DNA from: Hygrophila difformis
Lineage: Eukaryota; Streptophyta; Magnoliopsida; Lamiales; Acanthaceae
DNA: 64,000 bases
Reading direction: 5' to 3'
Assembly (NCBI GenBank): GCA_030278955.1
Contig: JAOANR010000004.1
Coordinates: 53,571,459-53,635,458, forward strand
The notes beneath the pieces were generated by a model. It had not been told where the DNA came from and did not search any database. It worked only from the letters and a program-made list of their open reading frames with translations. The position numbers and the translations under genes are program-made. Of this stretch, positions 32,527-63,800 are shown one piece after another (the stretch's first letter is position 1; the number at the start of each line of letters is the position of its first letter).

Positions 32527-33860
32527 ATTTAATGGAATAATTGCCAAATAAGTCTTTTCTTGTCATTTTTTCCAGATCCATCCTATTCAAATTTTTGGCG
32601 CCTATTAGTCCGCTTCATTTGCTAATTAAAACCAAATCCGTCCCAAACTCACTAATCCAAATCAATTAGAGATTTAATCAGAAAAATTGCCAAAAACGTC
32701 CATTTTCTTGTTGTTTTTTCCGAACCCATCCTCTACAACCCTTGCAAATAATGGCTCCAAAGCTCCAACTGTTGTGATCATTGCATTAAATATAATATAC
32801 TTTTGTGCATTATTTATTTATTTATTTATTTTTTCTGCAGTCTACATTATACTGTCACAACTACAAGCACGATGTTTTCAATGCATATCGTATTCTCATG
32901 TCAAACATGAAAAAACCTAATTATATGCATTGCATACTCTCATACAATACCATCAAACATTGGTTCGAAATTAAATATTTCATCGGCGCCTTTCTTCAAA
33001 ATAAAAGTAAATGGCAAACCAATGACATTAAATCTTATTCATTACCACTTTTACTAATCACAACTTCCTTCTTAAAAAAAAGAACAAATCGACCATGTTG
33101 GAATCCGGATGGCATATCAAAACGTTGGAAATGATACTTCATTTCAATAATACAAAAAATGGGCAATAATCAACTCTACGCAAATAAGTTTCTAATCTCT
33201 GCCTACTTCATTTATTTTAACATTTGAGTGCTCCACAAATTCATCCGCTCTCTGAAATGCCTCATTCACATTGACAATTTTCATACCTAATTCCTTCTTT
33301 GCTTGGATGGCGACCCCACTAGCTTGTCATTGAGCCCTCATTGGTTGTGTCCATGGTTACATGTTCATTTTTGTTTTGAAGGAAGACACCGTTGGAATAT
33401 GTAATTTTGAATTTGATGTCATTATAATGTGAATATGTAATGCATCTAATTAATTAGGTTTCTTGATTGTTGACATGCGAATATGATATGCATTGAATAT
33501 TTTTGACTTGTAGATGTGATGGTATAATGTAGACTGTAGAAACAAAAAAGAACAAAATATAATGCACAAAAGTAGATTATATTTAATGCAATTATCACAA
33601 CAGTTGAAGCCAATTATTTGCAAAGGTTGAAGATGACGGATTTGGACAAAACGACAAGAAAATGAATGTTTTTGGCAATTTTTCTGATTAGATCTATAAT
33701 TGACTTGGATTAGTGAGTTTAGGACGGATTTGATTTTAATTAGCAAATGAAGCGAACTAACAGGGGCCAAAAATTCGAATAGGACGGATTTGGAAAAAAT
33801 GACAAGAAAAAGGATTTCTAAAAAGGATTTCTTTGGCAATTATTCCATAATTTAATAGTA
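32527..33860. mobile_element. Non-autonomous element with ~0.4-kb terminal inverted repeats
   Basis: Left arm ~32527-32932 and right arm ~33438-33860 are diverged reverse complements. Matching landmarks include GGAATAATTGCC / GGCAATTATTCC at the outer ends, ATTAGCAAATGAAG and its complement, GTTGTGATCATTGCATTAAATATAAT and its complement, and TCAATGCATATC near the inner ends. The ~500-bp spacer codes for nothing recognisable. The 7-mer AATGATA directly flanks both ends (32520-32526 and 33861-33867) and may be the target duplication. Arm length suggests a Mutator-like or foldback element; superfamily is not certain. Confidence 0.65.
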
Positions 33861-33921: not shown

Positions 33922-33994
33922 TTCCGTTGCCGGGACTTGAACCCGGGTCTCTCGGGTGAGAGCCGAGTATCCTAACCACCTAGACTACAACGGA
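33922..33994 (-). tRNA. tRNA-Glu (anticodon CTC)
   Basis: Read on the minus strand, the 73-nt gene begins TCCGTTG and ends CAACGGA plus discriminator A, giving a perfect 7-bp acceptor stem. The D arm is TCTAGGTGGTTAGGA. The anticodon arm CTCGG-CTCTCAC-CCGAG has a 7-nt loop with anticodon CTC, decoding GAG (Glu). The T arm is CCCGGG TTCAAGT CCCGG, one mismatch or bulge from the usual 5-bp stem, and serves as the B box (GGTTCAAGTCC). There is no intron and CCA is not encoded, as expected for a nuclear plant tRNA. A run of T after the gene on the minus strand (AAAAAAAA at 33912-33919) is the pol III terminator. Confidence 0.95.
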
Positions 33995-43488: not shown

Positions 43489-45731
43489 TCATCATCATCA
43501 TCATAATCATCATAATAATACATACATAATCCATCCTTATTACTCCTATTTGTTATTCTTAATCTTGACTCTCTTTCTTGTTTCCATCTATTTCCCTATA
43601 TAAATTTCAAAAATAAGGTTTGTCTTCAAATTTTGCCCTGCTTTTGTATACAACCTTATAATTAGATGCTAAATTGTTTAAATTTGTACAGTACAAATTA
43701 ACAGTATAGGACTGTTATAGGTATTCCTAAAAAGTAAGCATGTGGATAAAACATTATATATGCAGTAATAATATTTCATTGATAGTGTAAGATGGTTGAC
43801 ATGTTTTAGTAGCTTAAATTGATTTTAAATTAGATTTTAAGGTTTTTAAAAAATTAATTATATTAATTTGAATATACTTATTTTACTACAATACCATCTC
43901 GCCGGAAACTGGAAACAGATGGGCAAGGAGGGGAGTGAGGATTAACCTTAATTTGACATAATAAATGATCAAATGCATAATAGGGAACAAATAGTGGAGC
44001 ATGTACAAATCTACAATACATAATGGTCCGTACTGGTAAGAGATAAAAATAAATAAATATGGTACATAAAGGACATTTTCATTTGCGTAAATAAAAATAA
44101 CATAAAGGAAGGACATCGTAATTTCCATGTCATTTCGCGTAAATTTCAACGTCATTTCATTTGCATTTGAATTTCATCTTTATTTCGATTTCAAAACCGC
44201 TCCTCCAAAGTCCCAACCCTCCTGCTCCTGGCTGCTGCTTCGTTTTCTGCTCCACCCGTCCACCGGACAACCGATCCCCGCCGCCGGTTTCTCCCCATTT
44301 CTCTTCTCTCAACCTAGTTGTCTGTGCAAATTCTACACCTCCTCAATGTGGATCTTATTTTGAATTATGGCGAATTTTGATTCCGCTTCTGACCTTTTGA
44401 TCTGTTACTTTTTGTCGATCCAATCGACGGATCGGTGACTGATGTAATGCAATGAGTTCACAGATCTTTCGTGCAATAGTTGGTTATTCTGTCTAATTCG
44501 GTGAGTTGATTTCTGAAACTTTTGTCGACTTGCGTTGACTCATGAACTATTAATCTGGTCTGCTATGTTTTGCGGATTTTTGTTTTTTATTTTGTCATAC
44601 GAAGTTGGATCTTTCGTTAGGTTTTAGAATCGATTAACTATTGTGATGAAATTTGTTATTGGCTGGATTTGACAATTCTCCCATGGTAATCCAGCGCAAG
44701 CTTAGGGGCGTGTATTTAATTTGGAGAGCCTGGGCTGTGTGGTTGGTTTAATTAGATGAATCATGTGTGTACATAAGTATATTTGTGTGAATTTGGTGAA
44801 ACATGTATGAATTAATTCTTTTTCTTCTGTGTTTTGTAATTGAGGAGGGGAAATATTTGTATCCTGTTTTTGGTTATTTATACCTATTGTAGGCATTGGT
44901 TTTTTCTGCCCCTGTATTTGGTCATATATTCTACTTCTTAAATGGTAAGATAACACGCGATCAGTTGCATGCCCCTGGTGAATATTCGCATTTATCCATA
45001 GAGAGATATAAATTGGAAAATTTGGATCATCTGGGTGGTGTAATTTGTGTATCTATCTATACCTTTGGCATGATGCTTTGTAAATGTTATCTTTTTGCTT
45101 TACGTCTTGTGTCTAGACATATTTTCGTTTTCCTGCATTTCTTGGTCGTAAAACTGGTGGCTTTCTAGTTACTACATATGAGTATTATCTGCAAATATAG
45201 TTCTTGAATTGGAATGTATAATTTTTCGCAATAATTGTGTTTGTCTTATTATAGTTATCTTGGTCCATAAATGTATTCCTTGTCGTTGATCATTGCTTTA
45301 ATAGTGGTTAAAGGTAATTCGTTGCCGCAAAATATGGAATCGATATTCTTGCTCTTGGCAGTTTCTTTGATGTTAGTTAAAATTAATTAATGTCTACTAT
45401 GTTCTCATCATTGTGAAATACAGAGCCTATATGCTTGCGTCTTTTGATTATTACTTTAAAATATTGGGTATACTTCTTTTGGAAGATGGATTGGTTGGGA
45501 TTTGAACCTCCATGCCTAAGGTTGGGAGGTTGAGGGGTTAATCAACTTAGCTAACCCAATCCTCAATATTGTGTGCAATTGTCTCGCACGTTTAAGACCA
45601 CCCAAATGTTTAAACTTAATGCCTTGCATATTTTGTTGATTGCAGATTACCAAAGAGTCGCTGTGATCTGAAGCACTGAGTTTATAATCACCCTGCCACC
45701 AGATCAGCTGCTTCTAGTAAAATCTGAAAAC
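43489..45731. other. Spacer and 5' UTR region of the CCCH zinc finger gene
   Basis: The first part is the RbcX 3' region and AT-rich spacer. From ~44180 the base composition changes to a C/T-rich leader-like stretch (CTCCTGCTCC, CACCCGTCCACC), suggesting the transcription start of the downstream gene. One or more 5'-UTR introns probably remove 44460-45645, because an acceptor-like TTGATTGCAG ends at 45646 shortly before the ATG. A SINE-like segment sits at 45484-45572. Confidence 0.45.
45484..45572 (-). repeat. SINE-like tRNA-derived segment
   Basis: On the minus strand it reads GGTTAGCTAAGTTGATTAACCC (A box-like) followed ~35 nt later by GGTTCAAATCCCAACC (B box). No target duplication or tail was found, so it is an old or partial copy. 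It lies within the presumed 5'-UTR intron. Confidence 0.5.
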
Positions 45732-47885
45732 ATGAAGGGCACCCCTAAATTATGTATGGAGGTTTTGGATTCCTTTTCTAGTTTGCTTGAATTTGCTGCC
45801 AACAATGATGCTGAGGCCTTCAAGGCATCCATTGAGCTTGATTTGTCTACAGTTGATGAAGTTGGACTTTGGTATGTCCGCAAGAAAGGTGTGAAGCAGA
45901 TAATCCAGGAAGAAAGGACACCGTTGATGGTAGCTGCAACTTATGGTAGTGTTGATGTGTTGAAGTTGATAGTTGCTCTACCCGAGGTTGATTTAAATAG
46001 GGCATGTGGCCAAGATAAGTGGACTGCTCTACACTGTGCTGCTTTTGGAGGATCTGTTAATGCTTGTGATGTTGTTAAGATTCTCTTATCTGCTGGTGCC
46101 AATCCAAATATTGAGGACACTCATGGCCTACACCCTGTTGATGTAATTGTAGTTCCTCCAAAGCTTCCTGGTGCAAGAGCTGTTCTTGAGGAATTGCTTA
46201 TGAACAATACTTCTGATGGTTCTGCTGGTGACTGTAATTTACTGGTGTCCATAACTGGCTCGAGTGGATCATCACCCCTGTTGTCTTCATCTCCTGAAAG
46301 TAGTCGGTCTCCTTGTTCCCCTGTTGATTCTGTTTCTTCTCCTACGGCCCCAAAGAGGGGTGATGATATCCATGGTAATGGCATCTCTGAGAAGAAACAA
46401 TACCCTGTGGATCCATCTCTTCCTGACATCAGAAATAGTATCTATGCAACTGATGAGTTCCGCATGTTTTCGTTCAAGGTTAGGCCTTGTTCAAGGGCTT
46501 ACTCTCATGATTGGACTGAATGTCCTTTTGTTCACCCCGGAGAAAATGCCCGCAGAAGAGACCCACGGAAATATCACTACAGTTGCGTACCTTGTCCTGA
46601 CTTCAGAAAGGGTGCTTGTAGGCGAGGGGACATGTGTGAGTATGCACATGGTGTCTTTGAGTGCTGGCTTCATCCTGCTCAGTATCGAACAAGGCTGTGC
46701 AAGGATGGCACAAGCTGTACTAGACAGGTCTGCTTTTTTGCCCACACTCCCGAAGAGCTGCGTCCTTTGTATGTTTCTACTGGATCTGGTGTTCCATCAC
46801 CAAGGTCAGCTGCATCAGCAGCTGGTTTCATGGACATGGCCACAGCATTGAACATCATGCCGGGTTCACCTACATCTCAGTCTATGTTGTCTCCTTCGGC
46901 ATTCAATCAAACTACTATGTCCCCTACAGCAAATGGAATGCCACATTCATCTGCAGCTTGGCCTCAGCCAAGTGTACCAGCTCTTCATCTCCCTGGAAGC
47001 AACATGCAGTCTAGTCGGCTGAGATCTTCCCTCAATGCTCGTGATATTCCACCTGAGGATCTGAATATCACGTATGATTTTGATGCACAGTCACATGTTC
47101 TCAATGAACTGGCTTGCCAACAGACAAGGTCTATTCAGGCAATGCTGAACCGTTCTGGTCGATCTTCTAAGACAATCTTAACTCCTGCAAATCTGGATGA
47201 ACTATTTTCATCTGAGATTGCATCATCACCTAGGTTTTCTGACCATATGGCGGTTTCAGGTGTTTTTTCCCCTACTCACAAAGCCAATGCTCGTAATCAG
47301 TTTACGCAGCAACACCCGCAGCAGAGCATTTTGTCTCCAATTAATACTAATACCTTTTCTCCAAGGAGTGTTGAACACCCTCGGTTGCAGGCTTCGTTTG
47401 GTGTCTCATCTCCTAGGATGTCTCCTAGAAGCTTAGAGACTCTATCTCCAATGAGTGCTCGTCTGTCAGCATTTGTTCAGCGTGAGCAGCAGCCACAAAT
47501 GCACAGCCTTAACACCTGGGATCTTGGATCGAAACACACACCAGGACCCCCACTCACCGATTGGGCTAAGTGGGGAACACCCGATGCAAAAGTGGATTGG
47601 TCTGTTGATGGACATGATCGAGGCAATCCGAAACATTCTTCCGTCAACCCCAACAACAACAAAAATGGAGATGAGCCCGACTTATCATGGGTGCAATCTC
47701 TCGTCAAAGAATCACCACCTGAGATGATGGACAAGCCTTCCTCAGCTGCAGCAGCAACCTCCTCTAATTCTGGTGCTGCACCATCCGGTGAGTGTTTGAA
47801 ACCAAATCTTCCAACTGACTCTACTGATCATTTGGCTTTAGGGCTGTGGCTCGAGCAGATGCAACTTGATCAGCTCGTGGCCTAG
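45732..47885 (+). CDS. Ankyrin-repeat, arginine-rich tandem CCCH zinc finger protein (RR-TZF)
   Basis: A single coding exon gives 717 aa. Residues ~62-150 hold ankyrin repeats ([40 protein letters not shown]). Then comes the plant RR-TZF module: an Arg/His-rich stretch ([20 protein letters not shown]), finger 1 C-x7-C-x5-C-x3-H ([19 protein letters not shown]) and finger 2 C-x5-C-x4-C-x3-H ([16 protein letters not shown]). The C-terminal half is Ser/Pro/Gln-rich. Plant RR-TZF proteins bind RNA, shuttle between nucleus and cytoplasmic granules, and act in hormone and stress responses; the ankyrin-bearing subgroup includes Arabidopsis AtC3H30-like genes. All Cys and His ligands are intact. The exact orthologue is not assigned. 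Confidence 0.93.
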
Positions 47886-50345: not shown

Positions 50346-50791
50346 AATCAAAAATTAAAATTTCATAAGTTGGAGATTTCTGTATACATATTATTGTATC
50401 TTTGAAAATGCATAAATAAATAAATAAAAATACAAAAATCTAATTCAGGTGGTGGGGTTTAGTGATTAAAGTGAGAAGAATATTTGTGTTTCAAAATTCT
50501 AATGAATTTTGACGTATTTTATTATTTAGCTTTGACTAAATATTATAGTAATGATTTAATTTGAGAAAACTATTCAAGTATGGTCTTGGTAGAATCGTCT
50601 AGGTGTCTAGTTTCAGAATATATATTTTATATAATTGTTTTTGTACCCATTTTGAAATACTATGAATTAAAGAAATGCAAGGAACTTTGTATAGAAAAAT
50701 AAAAGTGTATTGGAATTTGTGCAGAATAGTAAAAATGATTACTTTTAATAGGATTTGAAAATAATTAAGATTCTAATCATATTTAATTTCA

Positions 50792-50958
50792 GAGCTAATA
50801 AAAAAATTTGGCCATCAGAAGAGGCCACTTTAGTTTTTGGGCCTCGATTAATTTAATTTCCAATTGTTGGCCATATGAAGCAGAATGGGCCAGGGTAATG
50901 GACAAATGGACGGATTGCCTTCCAAAGCGGGCCGCGTGAATCACACACGCCCAATGCT
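50792..50958. repeat. MULE left terminal inverted repeat
   Basis: This 167-bp repeat is matched by 57243-57409 in inverted orientation. It includes GGCC-containing blocks (TTTGGCCATCAGAAGAGGCC) and GCGGGCCGCGTGAATC. In MuDR-type elements such repeats bind transposase and carry the promoter for the adjacent gene; here the GRF gene begins 179 bp further in. Confidence 0.95.
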
Positions 50959-51136
50959 GCCACGCGCCGGGTTGTTCAAAGTATTAATGAATTAGTTTGA
51001 CCCATTAGGTGCGGGTATTTATTGAAGGCAATTCTCCCTTCAACCCATTTTCTTCGTCGATTTCGAACCCTAAGAGCCAAAATCTCTCTTCCTCCTTCCC
51101 CTTCCCCTTCTCCCTGGAAAACACGCAGCAAACCAG

Positions 51137-52007
51137 ATGTCAATGGCGAGTTCGGGTTCAACATCAGAGGGCGAGAATAACTACGGGCTTCCAAACAAAG
51201 AATGCTTCTGCGGCCTCCGAGCTCGCTTGAATACAAGTTGGAAGGCTCCGAATGTGGGGAGGAGATTCTACGGTTGCCCGAAATGGAGAGTATGTGAACT
51301 CACTATAGTATGTTTTTTTGGATTCGGATTATGTGAAGTGATTGTTGTTTATATGCGTTAGTAGTGGTAAATTGTGGTTTCTTTTGTTGATTCCAAATGC
51401 CGAAGGATTTGGTTGATTAGGGGGTGTCGGGTCAGTAATTAGAGATGAGTGACATGGTGGTTGTTTACATGCGTTGCTATTGCCTTTTTAATTGGTTTAA
51501 GTGGCCTGAAGTTTAGATTAAGTAGTTGTGTTTTGTATGTTTGTTTGTAATTAGAGATGAGTGACATGGTGGCTGTTTACATGCGTTGCTAGTGTCTTTT
51601 TAATTGGTTTAAGTGGCCTGAAGTTTAGATTAAGTAGTTGTGTTTTGTATGTTTGTTTGCAGGGTGGAGGTTGTGATTTCTTTGATTGGGCGGAAGGGGA
51701 GATGTGTGTAAGATCCCAATCTTTGGTGCCTGGTTTGTTGAAGAAGTGCGATGCACTTGAGAAGAAACTTGCTGATGTGGAAATCGAGAGAGACCGTGTT
51801 GAGAACGAGAACAGGGAGTTGAAGCAAGATAAGAGGGAATGGATGAGAGTGAAAGAGGAGCTTGAGATGGAAAATGGTACATTGAGAAAGGAGAAGCAAA
51901 CAATGATGATGCTACTGGCCATTTGCATTGTGGTGTTAGGTGTTTTGTGTAAGGTATTGTATGATAGGGGAAGCTTGCACCGCAATCCGATGAAACAACT
52001 TAAGTAG
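51137..52007 (+). CDS. GRF zinc finger, coiled-coil, C-terminally membrane-anchored protein inside a MULE
   Basis: Two exons, 51137-51289 and 51663-52007, join in phase 0 to 165 aa. Residues ~20-67 are a GRF-type zinc finger: ECFCGLRARLNTSWKAPNVG, RRFYGCPKWR and then GGGCDFFDWAEGEM, with the Cys-x-Cys...Cys...Cys pattern and the G-R-x-F motif. Residues ~78-130 form a heptad-rich coiled coil (CDALEKKLADVEIERD through EELEMENGTLRKEK). Residues ~134-154 (MMMLLAICIVVLGVLCKVLY) are a membrane helix, with a short basic tail. It resembles plant proteins annotated as At4g04775-like, whose role is unknown. GRF fingers in other proteins bind single-stranded nucleic acid. Placement inside an element with intact ends suggests a transposon accessory gene; that is inference. 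The intron contains a 112-bp tandem duplication. Confidence 0.88.
51436..51659. repeat. 112-bp tandem duplication in the GRF gene intron
   Basis: The units 51436-51547 and 51548-51659 begin TAATTAGAGATGAGTGACATGG and differ at only a few bases (GGTTG/GGCTG, TATTGCC/TAGTGTC). The second unit leads directly into the exon 2 acceptor (TTTGCAG); the first ends TTTGTAA instead, so no second acceptor was created. Confidence 0.9.
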
Positions 52008-52354
52008 ATCTTGGACGTTGTTGTTCTATATATTAGCATAGAGGGACAAATTTTCAAAGTATATTGTTCCCTTGACATGTGTTCGGTGATGATTCGGCTA
52101 ATGAATTCGGATAGAGGAACAAGTTTTCCAAATGTAGTGTTCCTATTCCCATTATGTAATTGGAATGTGTAGTGTTTTTAGTAGGTTATGGACGGAACTT
52201 GTTTGTAATATTGTAATGAAACATGTTGTTAATGTTTAATGTGCATGTGTCTAAGTATTGTGTAAGTGTATTGTTTTTTCTTTTTTAGCAACAGAAACCA
52301 TGCTGATGGATCAATATGGATGCTTGAAGATGTCCAATTGTTCACTTTTGTTTG

Positions 52355-52560
52355 CCAAAATAAGCAATAAGCAGCAGCAAAATAAGCAATAAGTGCCAAT
52401 CTGATTTTGTTTGCCATAAATGCAATAGCAGCAGCAGAATAAGCAATAAGCCATTACTGCCAATCTGAACAAGAAACAGAATAAGCAGCAGCAGCGATAA
52501 GTAATAAGCAGCAGCAGCGATAAGTAATAAGCAGCAGCAATGAACAAGAAACAAAACAAG
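52355..52560. repeat. Imperfect minisatellite between the two MULE genes
   Basis: Repeats built of AATAAGCAGCAGC and CGATAAGTAATAAGCAGCAG alternate with copies of TTTGCCA..CTGAT sequence. At least six AAGCAGCAG-type units occur. It lies in the tail-to-tail gap of the convergent genes, about where transcripts should end. Confidence 0.75.
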
Positions 52561-53008
52561 AAAAATAATATTCAGTTTTGTTTGCCAATCTGATCTGATT
52601 TATTTGCCAGCATTTTCAAAGAATTAACCATATATTGATCACTTCAGACAATTGAAGAGCAATATGCAGCAGCAAAATCATGGTAATATGACCATCAGAG
52701 TAATCCAAAAGATTACAAATTTCAATAACTGCCATTCCATGTTTTGGATAAACTAAACAAAACATTTCACCAAGGTTATAAGCAGCAACAACACTGAACA
52801 TTGAACAATGTGGTAATCAAGGGTTAAGTTCATCAAGACTTCACACTTCCTAGAGACAAAATAGTGATCTACCACAAACAATCACATACGAAACACCAAC
52901 AACGGGTCCAGAAAATGGTGGAAGTTTATAATGTTTGTCTCCCCAACATTCAAAAGGCATTACAAAAATACAGCATAAAACCACTCTTTGTCATCCACGG
53001 TGCATTGT

Positions 53009-56000
53009 TCATTTCTTCCCTTTGCCCTTCATCGCAGCTTTGTTTCCAGTAGGCAAGGTGTGAGTTGGAGGTCCCTTGTGGCCAATACTAAACTTTGGTG
53101 CTCTCCACGAACCTCCAGCGTAAGGGACTGACCTACTCACAGGTAAAGGCCCAAGACCTTGCCTTTGTTGATTTATGGATGGACCTGGAATCAGTGGAGT
53201 GGGATCCAACAGTTGCTCTTGAGTGATCACGGGTTCTTCTACATGTTCATCTTCATCATTATGTGCAACAGGTGAGGTCGGTGGTAGTAATCGATCCTGA
53301 GAATAAATAAAAGAAAAAACTGGTGAATAAGCAAGGCTATTGAGTAAGAAATTATAGTTTGATTCATTCACCACATACCTGTGGTGCCAATACCGGGTCT
53401 GGTAGGGTCCCTCCAGGTGCAACAATGGTCCGAGTAGTCTGGTGCCACAACAGAAATTTGCACAATAAGTATGAGTAAATATTCGTAGCTGCACCTCACA
53501 TGAAACACAACAAAATGTAGTGATACATTCTACTTCCAATATAAGCACACATGTAATTACACTACATTATTGAGATAATATAATATTGCATTCCAAATTA
53601 ATTCTTACAGCCCTAGGTCGTTCCTTGTTAGTGTTTGATGGTGGGGCAGCCTGACTAGAGTTTCCAGTAACTGTTATACCAGCAGCCTTCCTTGCCTATA
53701 TGTAGTGAAATATGTGATGTTAATCTTAATGGCAGAACAACTGCTATTATTATATATGGATTATGAGATGTGATTATTATTACCTTGGCAAGTCTTCTCT
53801 TCTCCCGTAGTTCATCAGGAAAATCAGGGCAAGTGGTCCAACGATGTGCTTCTTCACCACAAGCACTGCAATGAACAATTGTGCCCCGTCTAGTCATCTT
53901 CGTGGGATCCTTCGTGTACCTTCTCTTTTGCTTCTTCTGTGGTTCACCAACAGATTTCTTCCTGGATTTAGGGGGTCTTCCAACACCTCTAGCAAAGTTC
54001 GGCGGTACTGGAGGTATATAAGAAGTTTTTTGCCAGAACAAGTCACTAGAAATCCCAATTATGGGATATTGGTAAGCCTGCTTGTATGTGGAGACTGAAA
54101 ATGCATCCTCTATATAATCAACCGGATCATGCCCTTGCTTGTAAATGGCTGCCAATCCATGAAGACATGGATAGCCATTCAATTGCCACAATCTACACGA
54201 GCACTCCCTCCTGACAAGATCTACAACATACTGAAAGTCCCCTTCCATCATTCTAATTTGGTAGTGTCTGTCACTACACTTTATTGGTATACAGTTTCCA
54301 ATCTTCCTACCAGTTTTTTGGATAATCTTCATAATCCTAGGACATATCGCTCGGCTAGACCACTTGATGACAGCCGTATCATAATTTTCAACATGCCTTT
54401 TCATTATGTATTCCCTTATACCTTCGAGGCTTGTGATAATGGTCTTGCTCCTTGCTTCCTTTATACAAAAGTTGAAAGACTCACACAGATTGTTTAATAG
54501 CATGTCACACATAGGGCCCTCCGAGAAGTGAGATTTACTCCATTGTGTTGGAGGCCTCTCACTCAACCATTTCCATGCTCCTTCAGAATATTCTCTTAAC
54601 TTCCTCATTGCATCAGTGAATTCTGGTACAGTCCCAGCTCTAGCGGCACTCCAAACAAGGTTCTTCAATGCAAGTCCTCTGTATCCAGCATTTGAAAAGT
54701 TGTTGTGCATGTGCCGCACGCAAAATCGATGATCAACACCAGGAAATAGTTGTTGCATTGCCTGTATCAACCCTTTTTGCCTATCTGAAATGAAAGTCAA
54801 ATATCTCACATTTGCCAATCCCAAATCCGCTTTCAGCATACCAAGAAACCACTCCCAGTTGTCTTTGTTCTCAATCGGTACGATAGCATAAGCAATGGGG
54901 TACAGTGCATTGTTTCCATCCACACCAACAGCCGTCAACAAGATGCCCTTGTGCGGTCCACTAAGGTGGCACCCATCAACCCCGATCAAAGGCCTACATC
55001 CTTGTTTCCACCCTTTCTTCAAAGCATCAAAGCATACGTAAAACCTGTCGACCCGTGTTTCACCATGATCCTCTTTTGTTCCCAATACAACTGTGCTACC
55101 AGGATTTCTTGTCCTGAGCTCTTCAGCATAGTCCCACAACCTGGAAAATTGGTACTCTGACGATCCGTTGAGCGCTTGCAATGCCCGTTTCTTTGCAAAT
55201 GTGGCCTGGTGTCTAGTCACATTAACTTTAAGCTTCTTGATGACATCTAATCTGAACCCTTCGACTGACCTCTTCGGATCTGAAATGAATTTGTGGAGGA
55301 ATCTCTCACTCAACCATGTACTGTTCAATGCTGGTACATCATAAGTCTCCTTGCAAGTGTGCTTAGACTCAAACCTGTTAACATAAATAAACAATATACA
55401 TCATCACTAACATGCTGTAAAGTTGTGAAGTGCAACAATTTTTCAATAAACATTATTCACCAACAAGCAGTAACAGTACCTTGTAACTTGTAAGCTTGTC
55501 TCCTTAGCAACACTGTGGGCACAAATCTTCCATTCACAATCTTTGCCCATACATTTGGCATACACCCTAGTTGGGGTTGACTTTACAAACTTTACTGGCC
55601 TTTGCTCCATAATAGCAAGTGATCGAACCGCTTTCTGAAACTCTTTCTTTGTGGCAAACAACATCTCCAAAGTGATTGTGGGTTTATAGATCTCGGATGA
55701 GTTGAAGACAGGAGCTCTCTTCTCACCATCGTTACCGTCGTCTGACAGCACCCTTGAATCAAAATCATCCGTCGTGAGGACCATGTCATCTTCCGAGTTA
55801 TCACCATCACTAAACTCCTGTAAGTTTTCAGGGTTGCCAGAATTGCTTGCCCTCCCAAGACCTTCCTCCGTCGCATTGTTTTCAGTTTCTTGTTCCTCTT
55901 CAAGGTCTTCATTTGTCTCATAATCGCTCTCCACGAAGATGTCTTCATCAGCCCACTCACTATCATCACTATCAGATTCATCACCCTCCACCATAGGCTC

Positions 56001-57053
56001 TTTACCCTTTCTTCGAGGACATTCATCACTCTCAAATTCACGAACAACATCATCTACTTGAACACTATCCACCTCAATGTCATCCCCAACACCCCCATCA
56101 GCCCCACCATCCACTTCACCCTCATCCGCCCCATCAGCCCACAGTCCTCTTCACCCTCATCCCTCCCTTCACACCCTTCATCAATTTCATCACCAACCCT
56201 TGCATCAGCCCCATGACCCGCCTCATCAGTCCCACCATCATTTTCATTCTTATCACCCTCATCTTCAGTTTCACTACCATATGGCCCACTTCCACCATCA
56301 TAACTTCCAGTAGAACTACTGCTTCCATCCTCTGCTTCACATAGTATCTCACCAACATATAGATGCAAAATTCTGAGTTTTATGTGTGCCCGAGCAATTT
56401 CCTTCAGCTGATTCTCGCTTGAAATAACTTTGAATCCATCGTCTTCCTTGATAAAGTATTGCAACTCCTCATTATCTGCTGCTGCACTCTCCTCTCTTAA
56501 TAGGTATGCAAGTACCGAGTAGTCTAAAATATTCGTGCTTACATGGTCATAAATTACTTGCTTCCCTCCTTGATACTCTGCCGGAGGCCCGTCGACGAAC
56601 TCCCCACCCCAGTGCAACACCACAGTCAAAGAAATACACCCTGGATCTGTAGGAATAGACAAGTGCCGTATTAAATAACAATTTCAAATAAGTTAATCGT
56701 TCTTACAGCTGTAATACTTGTTTAAACAACTCAACTCAACTATACACAACAATACAAAAAAGATTCCCCTTCCAGTGGGTACCACTGTCGGCTACACCAC
56801 CATAAATAAAGACTCAATATGTACAAACACATTCACTTTTTCGGAGCTTAGGACCACACCATTCGCTACACACTTATAATATATACCCTACATTCCATAT
56901 TTATCAATCCAACCAACCCATTCTACACAAAAACCATTCCGCATTTAAAGCATTTCCCTCATTTAGTTCGAAAAACTTAGAAATAGTCATAATGTACTTA
57001 CAATAGGGTGGCGGTGGCCAATCTATATTCGCATCCTTCCTACGTAAACCCAT
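53009..57053 (-). CDS. MURA-type Mutator transposase (one frameshift as written)
   Basis: Six exons on the minus strand: 57002-57053, 55480-56646, 53784-55374, 53609-53695, 53379-53438 and 53009-53296. Phases agree only if one base is missing in exon 2, giving ~1,081 residues. Order of parts: PB1-like N-terminus (ISLTVVLHWGGEFVDGP, about 20-120); long acidic linker; MuDR zinc/DNA-binding region (KCMGKDCEWKICA); DDE transposase core with D540 (GVDGCHL), D604 (FISDRQKG) and E705 (NNLCESFN); SWIM finger CSCRLWQLNGYPCLHG (~798-812); zinc knuckle CSACGEEAHRWTTC (~909-922); Pro/Gly-rich tail. It cuts and inserts DNA at the element ends in the nucleus. Catalytic residues and introns all look intact. 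The frameshift lies at CCC 56138-56140 and moves GEEDCG into the wrong frame before DGGADGG. Confidence 0.92.
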
Positions 57054-57242
57054 TGTGCTAGAATTTCTCGGACGGCGGCGTTCCAGGGAGGATTCAGTTT
57101 TTCTCCTCTAGGGTTCGGTGTAATTCGGAGCTAAGGATTTTTTGTTACTGAAGTGTAGCTTTGATTTTCACGCATGTAAACTTGTTTATTTTAACTTTGA
57201 GAACGTTTTTATGGATAAAAACGTGTTTTCCTTCGTTCCGGT

Positions 57243-57409
57243 AGCATTGGGCGTGTGTGATTCACGCGGCCCGCTTTGGAAGGCAATCCGTCCATTTGTC
57301 CATTACCCTGGCCCATTCTGCTTCATATGGCCAACAATTGGAAATTAAATTAATCGAGGCCCAAAAACTAAAGTGGCCTCTTCTGATGGCCAAATTTTTT
57401 TATTAGCTC
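57243..57409. repeat. MULE right terminal inverted repeat
   Basis: Inverted copy of 50792-50958, ending ...GGCCAAATTTTTTTATTAGCTC at 57409. The transposase start codon (57053, minus strand) is 190 bp inside it. The 9-bp duplication TTAATTTCA begins at 57410. Confidence 0.95.
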
Positions 57410-57558
57410 TTAATTTCACGTTCGGATCGGAGTTGCTGTCTGATTCTTGCATTTCACCCCGGCCCATCGAGAAAATGACTATTGTGTTATAACAAACAAC
57501 ATATATATTTGCGGTGAATAGAATTACACCATAAGCATGAAATGTTTTCCATATGTAG

Positions 57559-57821
57559 TACTCCCTCCATTTTTAAAAAATTGAAACATTCCTGTTTTTC
57601 ACATTATCCAATATATATTTTTAACGCTTAATATCTCAAAGTGTGTAGAAGTAAAAATTATAAAAAATTGATATTGTAAAACTACACGATTGGAAGAATA
57701 TAACAAGATCCCACTTGACTATGTTTTATCTTGTATAACTGTGTTAAAAATTTGAATCAAAGTTACTCAATGAATAGTAACAACTATGCAAATGTTACGA
57801 CTTTTAACAAACGGAGGAGTA
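57559..57821. mobile_element. Stowaway-type MITE, copy 4
   Basis: Ends TACTCCCTCCATTTTTAAAA and TTTTAACAAACGGAGGAGTA are inverted. The core AACAAGATCCCACTTGACTATGTTTTATCTTGTATAAC is the family core. It sits 150 bp beyond the MULE. Confidence 0.8.
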
Positions 57822-60821: not shown

Positions 60822-63800
60822 ATGGCGGCCAGCAACCTTAATTCTCTCACTTTCTCTACAGCTTCTGAAGATGCCTCCCAAAACAAGGTATATCTTAATA
60901 GTATCTTATTTAATTTTAACAACTTTCCCTCATATATATATATATATATATAACTCTCTTGACTCTTTAAGGTGTTAATGAATTTGTTTAATTTTGAGAC
61001 AAAACATCTGACAGCCAGCTTGTTAAGTTTTATACACACACACACACACAATTAAACATGGATTCTTGACTACTTTTAACAGGATGAAGATACATGAGTT
61101 CGAACTGAGTATGGTCAATAAAATGGGAACATTAAGCACATTAATTCTGTCCACTACAATGATATGATATTTTTTTTAGAAAAAAAATTTAAAAAAAAAA
61201 AAAAATCATGGAGTATTATATACTTAGTACATGTAAGTGATACTGTAGAATCTGGATTTTTTAACAGGATAATGATGTCGTCGTCCACATGAAATATGAG
61301 CAAACTTTGGAGAAAGTACGGTGCCTGTTCAACCATGAAGCAGAGTGTAATCATAGCTTGTCATTGATTGATGTTGTTCAACGGCTAGGATTGAGTCGCC
61401 ACTTCTCCGATGAAATCGGAGCCGTTCTTACCCACCACCACTTATACACTTGTTTTTCTCACAAACGATGCTGCTGCATCTCATCATCGTCGCCGTCGCA
61501 TCATGACTTGTATAATGTTTCCCTTGCTTTTCGCCTACTCAGACAAGCCGGTTTCACTGTTTCTCAAGGTACAAATAACCTATACCTATCCCGAAATCAT
61601 TTTGTCCTAAGACAAAAAAAAAAAAAAAGAAAAAAAAATTTATTCGGTCGGTATAATAATCAAAATGACTAAAAAAAGTTGTCACTATTATTGCTATTTT
61701 CTCCGACCTGAAATTTCAGATGTATTCGCCTCTTTCTTGGATGACAATGGGGAGACAAAGAGTTTCAAAGAAGATCTCAAACATGACACAAAAGGGTTGC
61801 TTGCATTGTATGAAGCCTCCCACTTAGGTTTCGAAGGAGAGGACATACTCGAGGAGGCAGCTATATTCAGTAGCCGTAGTCTGTGCTCGAATACTACTGA
61901 GGATGATGAGTGGCGAGAACCGACGAGACAATACACATTGAAAAATCCATGCCACACGAGTATAGCAAGGCTCATTGCAGCCATGGACATCATCGACAAC
62001 TATGTGACAAAGAACGAGTGGGCGAGTCTCTTTCAAGACTTGGCGAGGATGGAAAGCGCCGTGGTCGGATCGTTGTTTCAACAAGAAGTAGTACAAGTTG
62101 TCAAGTAAGGCGACACGAACAAATTATTAAATCAAATTTTTTTTTTCTCTAAATTTAGTTCAATTATTTTCGATTGAGAAGTTTAATTGGTGATGATGAT
62201 GATATGTATAAATATTTAACTTGGTGTTGATGATACATAGATGGTGGAATGGACTCGACCTAATAAAAGAAGTAGAGTGCGCGAGGGACCAACCGATGAA
62301 ATGGCACATGTGGTCCATGTTTGTGCTGCTCGATCCTAGTATGTCCTGGCAAAGAATACTTCTCACGAAACCTGTTTCTCTTGTGTATATCGTCGATGAT
62401 ATCTTTGATTTGTACGGTACTTTGGATCAACTCAATCTCTTCACACAAGCTATTCAAAGGTGGAGTAATTGTTGTACATGGTTTATTTATAATTGTACTT
62501 CCTATGTTCACATATAATTGCTCCACTTTTACATTTCACGCAATCCAATACACATTTTTAAATGTTTATAACTCAAATTATATACAAGTAAAAATTATAA
62601 AAATTTGATATTCTAAAACTACGTGATTAGACGAATCTAACAAGATCTCACTTGACTATATTTTATCTTATAGAACTATGTCAAAAATTTGATCAAAGTT
62701 ACTTAATGAATAATTACTACTATGCAAATGGATCATTTAAATGAGAACGGAGGTAGTATATAATAACAAGTTAATTAGAATTGTGTCATTATTGTACTAT
62801 TTTGCAGATGGGAATTTTGTGAAAGCGAAGGACTACTGCCAAACTACATGAACATGTGTGTTAATGTGATCATAGAGACAACGCAAGAAATCAGCCATGT
62901 AATCCACCAAAAGCATGGATTCAACCCTTTCGACATCCTAAAGAGATCGGTAAATACTTCCTCGTCTCATTATTTTTGTTACATTGGCGCCGAGATATAT
63001 TTTCAACGGTTAATAACTTAAATTGTGTACAACGAAAAATAATAAAAAGTTGATTGTCTAAAACTACAAGATTAGACGAATCTAACAAGATCTCACTTGA
63101 CTATGTTTTTTCTTACATGGCTATATTAAAAATTTGAATCAAAGTTAAACAGTGAATAATAAAAAAAAATGATGAATAGTGCAAAAAAAAACCTCTGTAA
63201 CAAAAATGTTGAGACGGAGGTAGTATAAATTAATAAAAATGATGAGACAGCTGACTAAACTCTCTCTCATGATTTATTTCTTTTTTGTAGTACTATTACT
63301 AGGGGTGAAAACGGGACGGATACGGGCGGATAGTACTCATCCCGTATCCTATCCCATATTTTTTTGTCGAATATGGAATCGGATACGAATAGGCCGGATA
63401 CAAATACGAATTCGAATATTTCGGGAAACAGATACGAGACGGATTCGGATTTTAACACGGATAATCTTATAATTACTAAAATTATTTTATTTTATTTTTT
63501 TATAATTTTAAGTGAAATCGGAATATACTACTATGTAAGCTAAACTAAATTTTTAAATTTTCCAAGATCATTAGTTATTTCGTTCAAAATATCTAAATAA
63601 CATCACTACAAGATGTTACATACTACAGTTTTGATGCAAAGAACCTAATGATGTAGTTGAGTTGATTGATATGATTTGATTTAATAAATTACATATGGCT
63701 TTCAAGCTTTTGATTATTTATACATATAGTATTACTTATTTATTTTATAGTTAATATACTATATTATATTATACATATAAAAATATATATAAATTTTCGG

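What the first reader, a model, noticed from the sequence alone, without database searches (positions are those of the whole stretch)
50792..57409. Structurally complete, apparently very young two-gene Mutator-like element
Both 167-bp terminal inverted repeats look identical by eye and the 9-bp duplication TTAATTTCA is exact, so insertion was recent. The element keeps catalytic residues D540, D604, E705, SWIM finger and zinc knuckle. Full-length MULEs with both ends, target duplication and two intact-looking genes are uncommon finds. This may be an active family in the genome.
Basis: seen in the sequence. Interest (0 to 1): 0.9.

Follow-up and report, generated by a model that had tools for sequence, protein, structure and literature searches.

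The report
Two-gene Mutator transposon with zinc-finger partner
A recently copied plant jumping gene of the Mutator type has perfect ends but a one-base break in its enzyme gene, and it belongs to a family in which most copies found in this genome carry the same second, zinc-finger gene of unknown job.

Summary
The structure is as reported: 50792-57409, terminal inverted repeats (TIRs) identical at 167/167, perfect 9-bp duplication, two convergent genes. Two readings need correcting. (2) Identical TIRs do not date the insertion: among five copies TIR divergence is inherited or homogenised. Youth is supported otherwise: a sister copy 3 Mb away differs at 36 of 6531 sites. 0 of 5 copies keep an uninterrupted transposase, so autonomy is not supported. 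The real interest is the second gene: GRF zinc finger, coiled-coil-like middle, hydrophobic tail. Of 74 related transposase loci, 66 have a convergent GRF gene downstream, 1 a same-strand one, 7 none; a hAT control gave 1 of 150. The two genes diverge together. GRF-less elements also moved recently, so it is not essential in cis. My paper searches found no report of this pairing.

The parts
50783..50791 (.). target site duplication, left copy (TTAATTTCA)
50792..50958 (+). left terminal inverted repeat, 167 bp
   Evidence: identical to the right one at 167 of 167
51137..51289 (+). GRF gene exon 1
   Evidence: GT-AG intron; frame open in 4 of 5 copies
51290..51662 (+). GRF gene intron; holds a 112-bp tandem repeat (51435-51659), 2 copies here, 3 in the sister copy, 1 in the other three
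51663..52007 (+). GRF gene exon 2: rest of the zinc finger, coiled-coil-like middle, hydrophobic tail (residues 132-150)
   Evidence: (PF06839, E 3.6e-10, above cut-off)
52008..53008 (.). spacer between the convergent genes, with a 23-bp tandem repeat at 52480-52539; its 52392-52791 window has the lowest identity of W to C13 (66%) and C1 (71%), and 60% to C12 (equalled there only at the edge of a large deletion)
53009..53296 (-). transposase exon 6 and stop
53379..53438 (-). transposase exon 5
53609..53695 (-). transposase exon 4
53784..55374 (-). transposase exon 3: DDE catalytic domain (D 54975-54977, D 54783-54785, E 54480-54482), SWIM finger (starts 54203), CCHC knuckle (starts 53870)
55480..56646 (-). 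transposase exon 2: PB1 domain, acidic linker, DBD_Tnp_Mut domain
56330..56644 (-). N-terminal PB1 domain
   Evidence: 17-sequence alignment, AlphaFold2 mean pLDDT 80.8, Foldseek best hits AtNBR1 and NBR1 PB1 domains, E about 4e-4
56054..56150 (-). zone of the frame break: upstream frame stops at 56054, downstream frame opens at 56150; private one-base loss within one unit of a 36-bp tandem repeat
57002..57053 (-). transposase exon 1 with ATG
57243..57409 (-). right terminal inverted repeat, 167 bp
57410..57418 (.). target site duplication, right copy (TTAATTTCA)
   Evidence: two paralogous unoccupied segments carry this 9-mer once at the matching place

Best explanation
A Mutator-like DNA transposon of a plant lineage with two convergent genes, each starting just inside one TIR: a PB1-DBD-DDE-SWIM-CCHC transposase and a protein with a GRF zinc finger, coiled-coil-like middle and hydrophobic tail. 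Shown: ends, 9-bp duplication, gene structures by splice signals (no transcripts), a recently diverged sister copy, a private frame break in this copy's transposase, and frequent GRF pairing across the lineage in this genome. Inferred: a full transposase (from another copy) binds the TIRs, cuts and pastes into AT-rich sites, and PB1 lets it oligomerise; the GRF protein is an inherited accessory factor, most likely one that handles single-stranded or forked DNA left at cut or repaired ends, as mudrB is an accessory gene of MuDR. This copy is probably mobile only in trans.
For: Ends and duplication. Domains. Five near-complete copies, 5 of 5 with perfect and different 9-bp duplications. Sister copy 36/6531 differences. 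Frame break private to W, absent in 4 of 4 other copies; a relative (L024) reads most of PB1, the linker and the DBD in one open 379-codon frame; of 357 GT-AG pairs that would bridge the break, none of the twelve best-ranked combines T-richness, acceptor pyrimidines and donor sequence as the six real introns do. GRF pairing: 56 of 74 from lists (0.24 expected by chance; 51 of 69 without the query's own five copies) plus 11 of 18 re-examined: 66 convergent, 1 same strand, 7 none; hAT control 1 of 150. Codivergence: Mantel r 0.50 for 12 representatives, 1 of 2000 permutations as high. GRF dN/dS median 0.41 in 23 measurable pairs outside the subfamily; conserved Cys/Trp pattern in the 15 sequences aligned, gaps allowed. 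[quoted passage not shown] the W finger matches NEIL3 GRF chains in the PDB (E 1.7e-9).
Against: The GRF role is untested. Three elements with both TIRs lack it (L030; L040 and L041, 99.77% identical over 5.6 kb and thus recently moved). GRF dN/dS within the subfamily is 0.25-1.73 on few changes, weaker constraint than the transposase. Some of the 74 loci look like copies of one another (same scores), so they are not 74 independent events. By my lists 69 of 125 GRF loci had no listed transposase within 12 kb; 6 of these were later found beside one, 63 were not examined. The frame break is one base in a G-rich repeat and could be an assembly error.
Confidence: 0.75

Rival explanations
1. The GRF protein is an anti-silencing factor like VANC of VANDAL elements: it binds repeats in the element's own non-coding DNA and removes methylation, rather than acting in strand transfer.
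For: VANC proteins, encoded by extra genes of a MULE (passage), bind motifs that are tandemly repeated in non-coding parts, including introns, and cause loss of methylation (PMC5735166, passages). Here the GRF intron carries a 112-bp tandem repeat of 1, 2 or 3 copies and the spacer is a fast-changing part. GRF changes faster than the transposase.
Against: The 112-bp repeat is found in W and its sister only, the 23-bp repeat in W only. No shared motif was shown. The hydrophobic tail suggests a membrane anchor, odd for a methylation factor.
Confidence: 0.25
2. The GRF gene is a captured host gene (Pack-MULE style passenger) with no role in transposition.
For: MULEs capture genes; Abermu ORFRs may be independent captures (PMC9168764, sections 16 and 23). 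GRF-less elements move.
Against: The same gene lies downstream at 67 of 74 loci, convergent at 66, codivergent with the transposase, and kept as a protein while synonymous sites are saturated. Repeated capture does not predict this.
Confidence: 0.1
3. The element is a currently active autonomous MULE.
For: Identical TIRs, perfect duplication; sister copy 99.45% identical.
Against: 0 of 5 copies has an uninterrupted transposase: W frame break; sister copy frame break plus a 54-bp loss; C13 stop at codon 784; C1 and C12 several indels.
Confidence: 0.12
4. The frame change in exon 2 is bridged by an unrecognised intron, so the gene is intact.
For: 357 GT-AG pairs would join the two frames.
Against: None of the twelve best-ranked combines donor, pyrimidine-rich acceptor and T content like the six real introns; 4 of 4 other copies differ from W by one base at the spot; a relative reads straight through.
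Confidence: 0.03

Closest known systems
MuDR of maize (mudrA + mudrB)
   Same: Two oppositely transcribed genes between long TIRs, 9-bp duplication, transposase of the MULE superfamily; second gene of unclear function (PMC3276141 passages; PMC9168764 passages and section 13).
   Different: mudrB is described as present only in Zea (PMC3276141, passage); here the second gene encodes a GRF finger. MURB could not be compared (no sequence at hand). Mu ends are GAGATA; here GAGCTA.
Abermu, type II (grasses)
   Same: Transposase plus an opposite-strand ORFR next to the other TIR; 138-145 bp TIRs, mostly 9-bp, TA-rich duplications; ORFR evolves faster (PMC9168764, sections 13-16 and 23).
   Different: Termini GGG...CCC; ORFRs of distant grasses share no detectable similarity; 'GRF' does not occur in the main text.
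VANDAL21/Hiun of Arabidopsis (VANA, VANB, VANC)
   Same: MULE with extra genes; an extra gene acts on the element; tandem repeats in introns and non-coding parts (PMC5735166, passages).
   Different: 'Zinc' does not occur in that main text; the function of the GRF protein is untested.
GRF zinc fingers of NEIL3 / APE2
   Same: Same finger, PF06839 above cut-off; PDB sequence match to NEIL3.
   Different: There the finger is part of a repair enzyme; here it is in a small protein with a coiled-coil-like middle and hydrophobic tail, encoded by a transposon.

Membership tests
MULE superfamily | MULE-type DDE transposase | tested here: met
   PF10551 E 1e-17, above cut-off; D/D/E present in W; over 23 loci first D 22 (one not aligned), second D 20 (3 N), E 22 (1 V)
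MULE superfamily | SWIM finger / MuDR DNA-binding domain | tested here: met
   PF04434 and PF03108 above cut-off
MULE superfamily | TIRs, usually long | tested here: met
   167 bp, identical
MULE superfamily | 8-11 bp target duplication | tested here: met
   9 bp, 5 of 5 copies perfect
MuDR family proper | mudrB homologue as second gene | not testable with these tools
   no MURB sequence at hand; protein database off
MuDR family proper | GAGATA ends and about 220-bp Mu TIR | tested here: not met
   ends GAGCTA, TIR 167 bp; Mu values from PMC3276141
Abermu | GGG...CCC termini | tested here: not met
   GAGC...GCTC; Abermu value
Abermu | opposite-strand second ORF near the far TIR | tested here: met
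   architecture only, no sequence comparison possible
VANDAL | VANC-type anti-silencing gene | tested here: inconclusive
   second gene matches only the GRF family above its cut-off; no VANC sequence compared; function untested
autonomous element | uninterrupted transposase gene | tested here: not met
   W first stop at codon 215; 0 of 5 copies uninterrupted

The most novel reading that the evidence does not exclude
The GRF zinc-finger gene with its hydrophobic tail is an old, vertically kept second gene of a whole PB1-transposase branch of plant MULEs, a general counterpart of maize mudrB, and many plant genes annotated as 'GRF zinc finger family' are transposon genes. It may act on single-stranded ends or as an anti-silencing factor anchored at a membrane such as the nuclear envelope.
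Probability: 0.45. Interest if true: 0.7.

Novelty: new variant of a known kind. Interest (0 to 1): 0.5.

Why it matters
The role of mudrB has stayed unclear, and it is reported only from Zea. A second gene with a recognisable domain, found at 67 of 74 related loci of one genome beside natural GRF-less elements, gives a comparative system for asking what accessory genes do for Mutator-like elements. It also warns that plant 'GRF zinc finger' gene sets, such as the twelve differentially methylated ones in a peanut study (PMC6293580, passages), may include transposon genes (inference).

Tried and rejected
TIR identity as a clock: rejected. Right TIRs of C13 and C1 group together and apart from their own left TIRs (support 0.92), and both C12 TIRs are of the left type, so divergence predates insertion and TIRs can be homogenised. 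A 95% upper bound from 0/167 would be 0.7-1.3 My at recalled rates of 1.3e-8 and 7e-9; not used.

Relatives in the viral and prokaryotic collections: none, as expected for a plant element. Single-sequence fold of the N-terminal domain: poor (pLDDT 44.7), replaced by an alignment of 17. No Pfam family above cut-off for that piece. Transposase core against PDB sequences: no hit.

Clean empty site: only half found. Two paralogous segments on the same chromosome (94-95% over the right flank) hold TTAATTTCA once, followed directly by the right flank, with no element; but homology on the left ends about 15-20 bp from the junction. The search with the left flank did not complete.

The seven transposase loci without GRF were rescanned with profiles built from up to 14 GRF sequences: still none. 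For one of them (L035) a convergent GRF match lies 14 kb downstream, outside my 12-kb limit and the fetched stretch; I left it as 'none'.

Literature: searches for GRF plus Mutator/MULE/transposase terms gave no paper on a GRF second gene of a MULE: searches (20 of 106 listed, none with the GRF term; 20 of 2451 listed, none with zf-GRF; 0 papers; 2 papers, wheat and peanut; passages read, neither about MULEs; 8 of 66 listed, none with a GRF term; At4g04775, a label I recalled) gave 2 unrelated papers. Subscription journals and Repbase are not covered.
Full report
WHAT IS THERE. The element spans 50792-57409 (6618 bp). Its TIRs agree at 167 of 167 bases and then diverge at once; TTAATTTCA flanks both ends. 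On the plus strand, starting 179 bp inside the left TIR, lies a two-exon gene for a 165-aa protein: GRF zinc finger (PF06839, E 3.6e-10, above cut-off), coiled-coil-like middle (only weak, below-cut-off matches to coiled-coil families), and a hydrophobic stretch at residues 132-150. On the minus strand, starting 190 bp inside the right TIR, lies a six-exon transposase gene with GT-AG introns. Gene models rest on splice signals and frame; no transcripts were available. Both genes run inward and converge on a 1-kb spacer, the layout of MuDR.

THE TRANSPOSASE IS BROKEN. From the ATG the frame runs through the N-terminal domain and the acidic linker and stops at codon 215. The DNA-binding domain, DDE triad, SWIM finger and CCHC knuckle lie in another frame, open from 56150 to 53009 (898 codons). 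The break is a one-base loss in one unit of a 36-bp tandem repeat; 4 of 4 other copies lack it. A relative, L024, reads most of the PB1 domain, the linker and the DBD in one frame of 379 codons. I scored 357 possible introns (58-500 nt) that would bridge the break; none of the twelve best-ranked combines the donor, acceptor and T content of the six real introns. An assembly error in a G-rich stretch remains possible.

THE N-TERMINAL DOMAIN IS PB1. Pfam gave nothing above cut-off. An alignment of 17 family members gave a model with mean pLDDT 80.8, and Foldseek's four PDB matches below E 0.001 are all PB1 domains (AtNBR1, NBR1, a PB1 complex, a human PB1 domain; E 3.6e-4 to 9.7e-4, probability 1.00, TM by query 0.55-0.64). 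PB1 domains oligomerise (established knowledge); the frame break separates this domain from the catalytic part.

COPIES IN THE SAME GENOME. The 167-bp TIR finds 17 places in the 915-Mb own genome (lower bound). Ten form five near-complete elements: W, C10b (3 Mb away on the same chromosome), C13, C1 and C12, 6207-6644 bp, 5 of 5 with perfect 9-bp duplications, all different and AT-rich. Two more TIR places bound a 2.25-kb derivative with decayed GRF remains and no transposase match (L022). The other five places are single weaker matches. W and C10b are 99.45% identical (36 differences in 6531 sites; 14 derived in W, 19 in C10b, 3 unresolved). With recalled plant rates of 7e-9 and 1.3e-8 this puts their split at about 0.2-0.4 My. 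So recent movement is supported, but by this comparison and not by the TIRs: TIR-TIR identity is 100% in W, 93.4% in C10b, 89% in C13, 86% in C1 and 98.8% in C12 although C12 is the most diverged copy, and the TIR tree joins C13 and C1 right ends apart from their left ends. No copy has an uninterrupted transposase (0 of 5, using W's exon borders). The GRF frame is open in 4 of 5.

THE SECOND GENE IS A LINEAGE TRAIT. A transposase query gave 97 matches (75 of 2991 first-look candidates scored), which merge into 74 loci; a GRF query gave 154 matches, 150 listed (150 of 591 candidates scored), which merge into 125 loci. 56 of 74 transposase loci have a listed GRF locus within 12 kb, all 56 downstream and convergent, at 1.2-5.2 kb; 0.24 expected by chance. 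Without the query's own five copies it is 51 of 69. I fetched the other 18: 11 hold a GRF gene by tblastn, 10 convergent and one (L028) on the same strand; 7 hold none in the fetched 10 kb. In all 66 convergent, 1 same-strand, 7 without. Several loci look like copies of one another (equal scores), so the number of independent events is smaller. Control: of 150 hAT places, 1 lies within 12 kb of a GRF locus and 0 near this MULE lineage. A second transposase query returned, by eye, largely the same set; of four new loci, two have a listed GRF partner and two do not. In the other direction, 69 of 125 GRF loci had no listed transposase; 6 of them were then found beside one and 63 remain unexamined.

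In the 15 GRF sequences aligned, a Cys/Trp pattern (C-x-CG, R-x-Y-x-C, W, C, Q, P-x-LL) is kept, gaps allowed. Transposase and GRF distances correlate among 12 representatives (r 0.50; 1 of 2000 permutations as high) and among all 16 loci with both genes (r 0.83; 0 of 2000). Synonymous sites are mostly saturated between subfamilies while the protein is kept; dN/dS has a median of 0.41 in 23 measurable pairs outside the subfamily (some with decayed copies), against 0.06-0.35 for the transposase where measurable. Within the subfamily GRF dN/dS is 0.25-1.73 on few changes, so short-term constraint is weak or blurred by decay and exchange between copies.

AGAINST AN ESSENTIAL ROLE. L030 (4.6 kb, 9-bp duplication TATAAACAT) and L040/L041 (5.6 kb, TIRs 98-99%, 99.77% identical to each other, different right flanks; left flanks not seen) have no detectable GRF gene. 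GRF is therefore not needed in cis, as PMC9168764 suggests for an ORFR-less Abermu (section 23).

MECHANISM. Shown: anatomy, copies, pairing. From known families: MULE transposases cut and paste and make 8-11 bp duplications. Inferred: PB1-driven oligomers; a GRF protein that handles single-stranded or forked DNA at excised or repaired ends, because GRF fingers of NEIL3 bind such DNA (PMC9266487, passages), held near a membrane by its tail. Rival: anti-silencing, as for VANC, whose targets evolve as tandem repeats in introns and other non-coding parts (PMC5735166, passages); here the GRF intron repeat varies 1-3 copies and the spacer changes fast. I put the cofactor at about 0.4, anti-silencing 0.25, passenger 0.1, the rest unknown.

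EMPTY SITE. Two segments about 130-155 kb away repeat the right flank at 94-95% and carry the 9-mer once without an element, but their left sides are not homologous beyond about 15-20 bp; this is only half an empty site.

VERDICT. A real, recently copied but probably non-autonomous MULE; a member of a known superfamily with a second gene that I did not find described. New variant of a known kind.

Noticed in passing
L021 (C12 copy) versus window 51547-52278: The C12 copy is a mosaic: the segment with GRF exon 2 is 95% identical to W, the transposase segments 85-89%; synonymous divergence 0.021 in GRF versus 0.257 in the transposase. Suggests exchange between copies.
   Followed up: partly
window 57556-57821: About 265 bp of the right flank is a dispersed repeat; at least three dozen places at about 88-93% are listed from a capped search; related repeats at 62495 and 62940.
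   Followed up: no
window 32532-33848: A foldback-like structure with arms up to 198 nt (89%) and a tRNA match just outside, at 33922-33994 minus.
   Followed up: no
L039, L037: Related transposase loci whose transposase matches are split by 2.6 and 4.7 kb, perhaps nested insertions.
   Followed up: no
L040 (C4) and L041 (C5): Two 5.6-kb GRF-less relatives, 99.77% identical; no stop in the tblastn-aligned transposase core, though one search lists one TGA in a match at each. A recently moved subfamily.
   Followed up: partly
L035 (C14:18089286-18090506): A convergent GRF match lies about 14 kb downstream, possibly this element's partner pushed away by an insertion; counted as 'none'.
   Followed up: no
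window 45672-47885 and 61611-62108: Neighbouring genes: an ankyrin/CCCH zinc-finger gene to the left and a terpene synthase N-terminal exon to the right.
   Followed up: no
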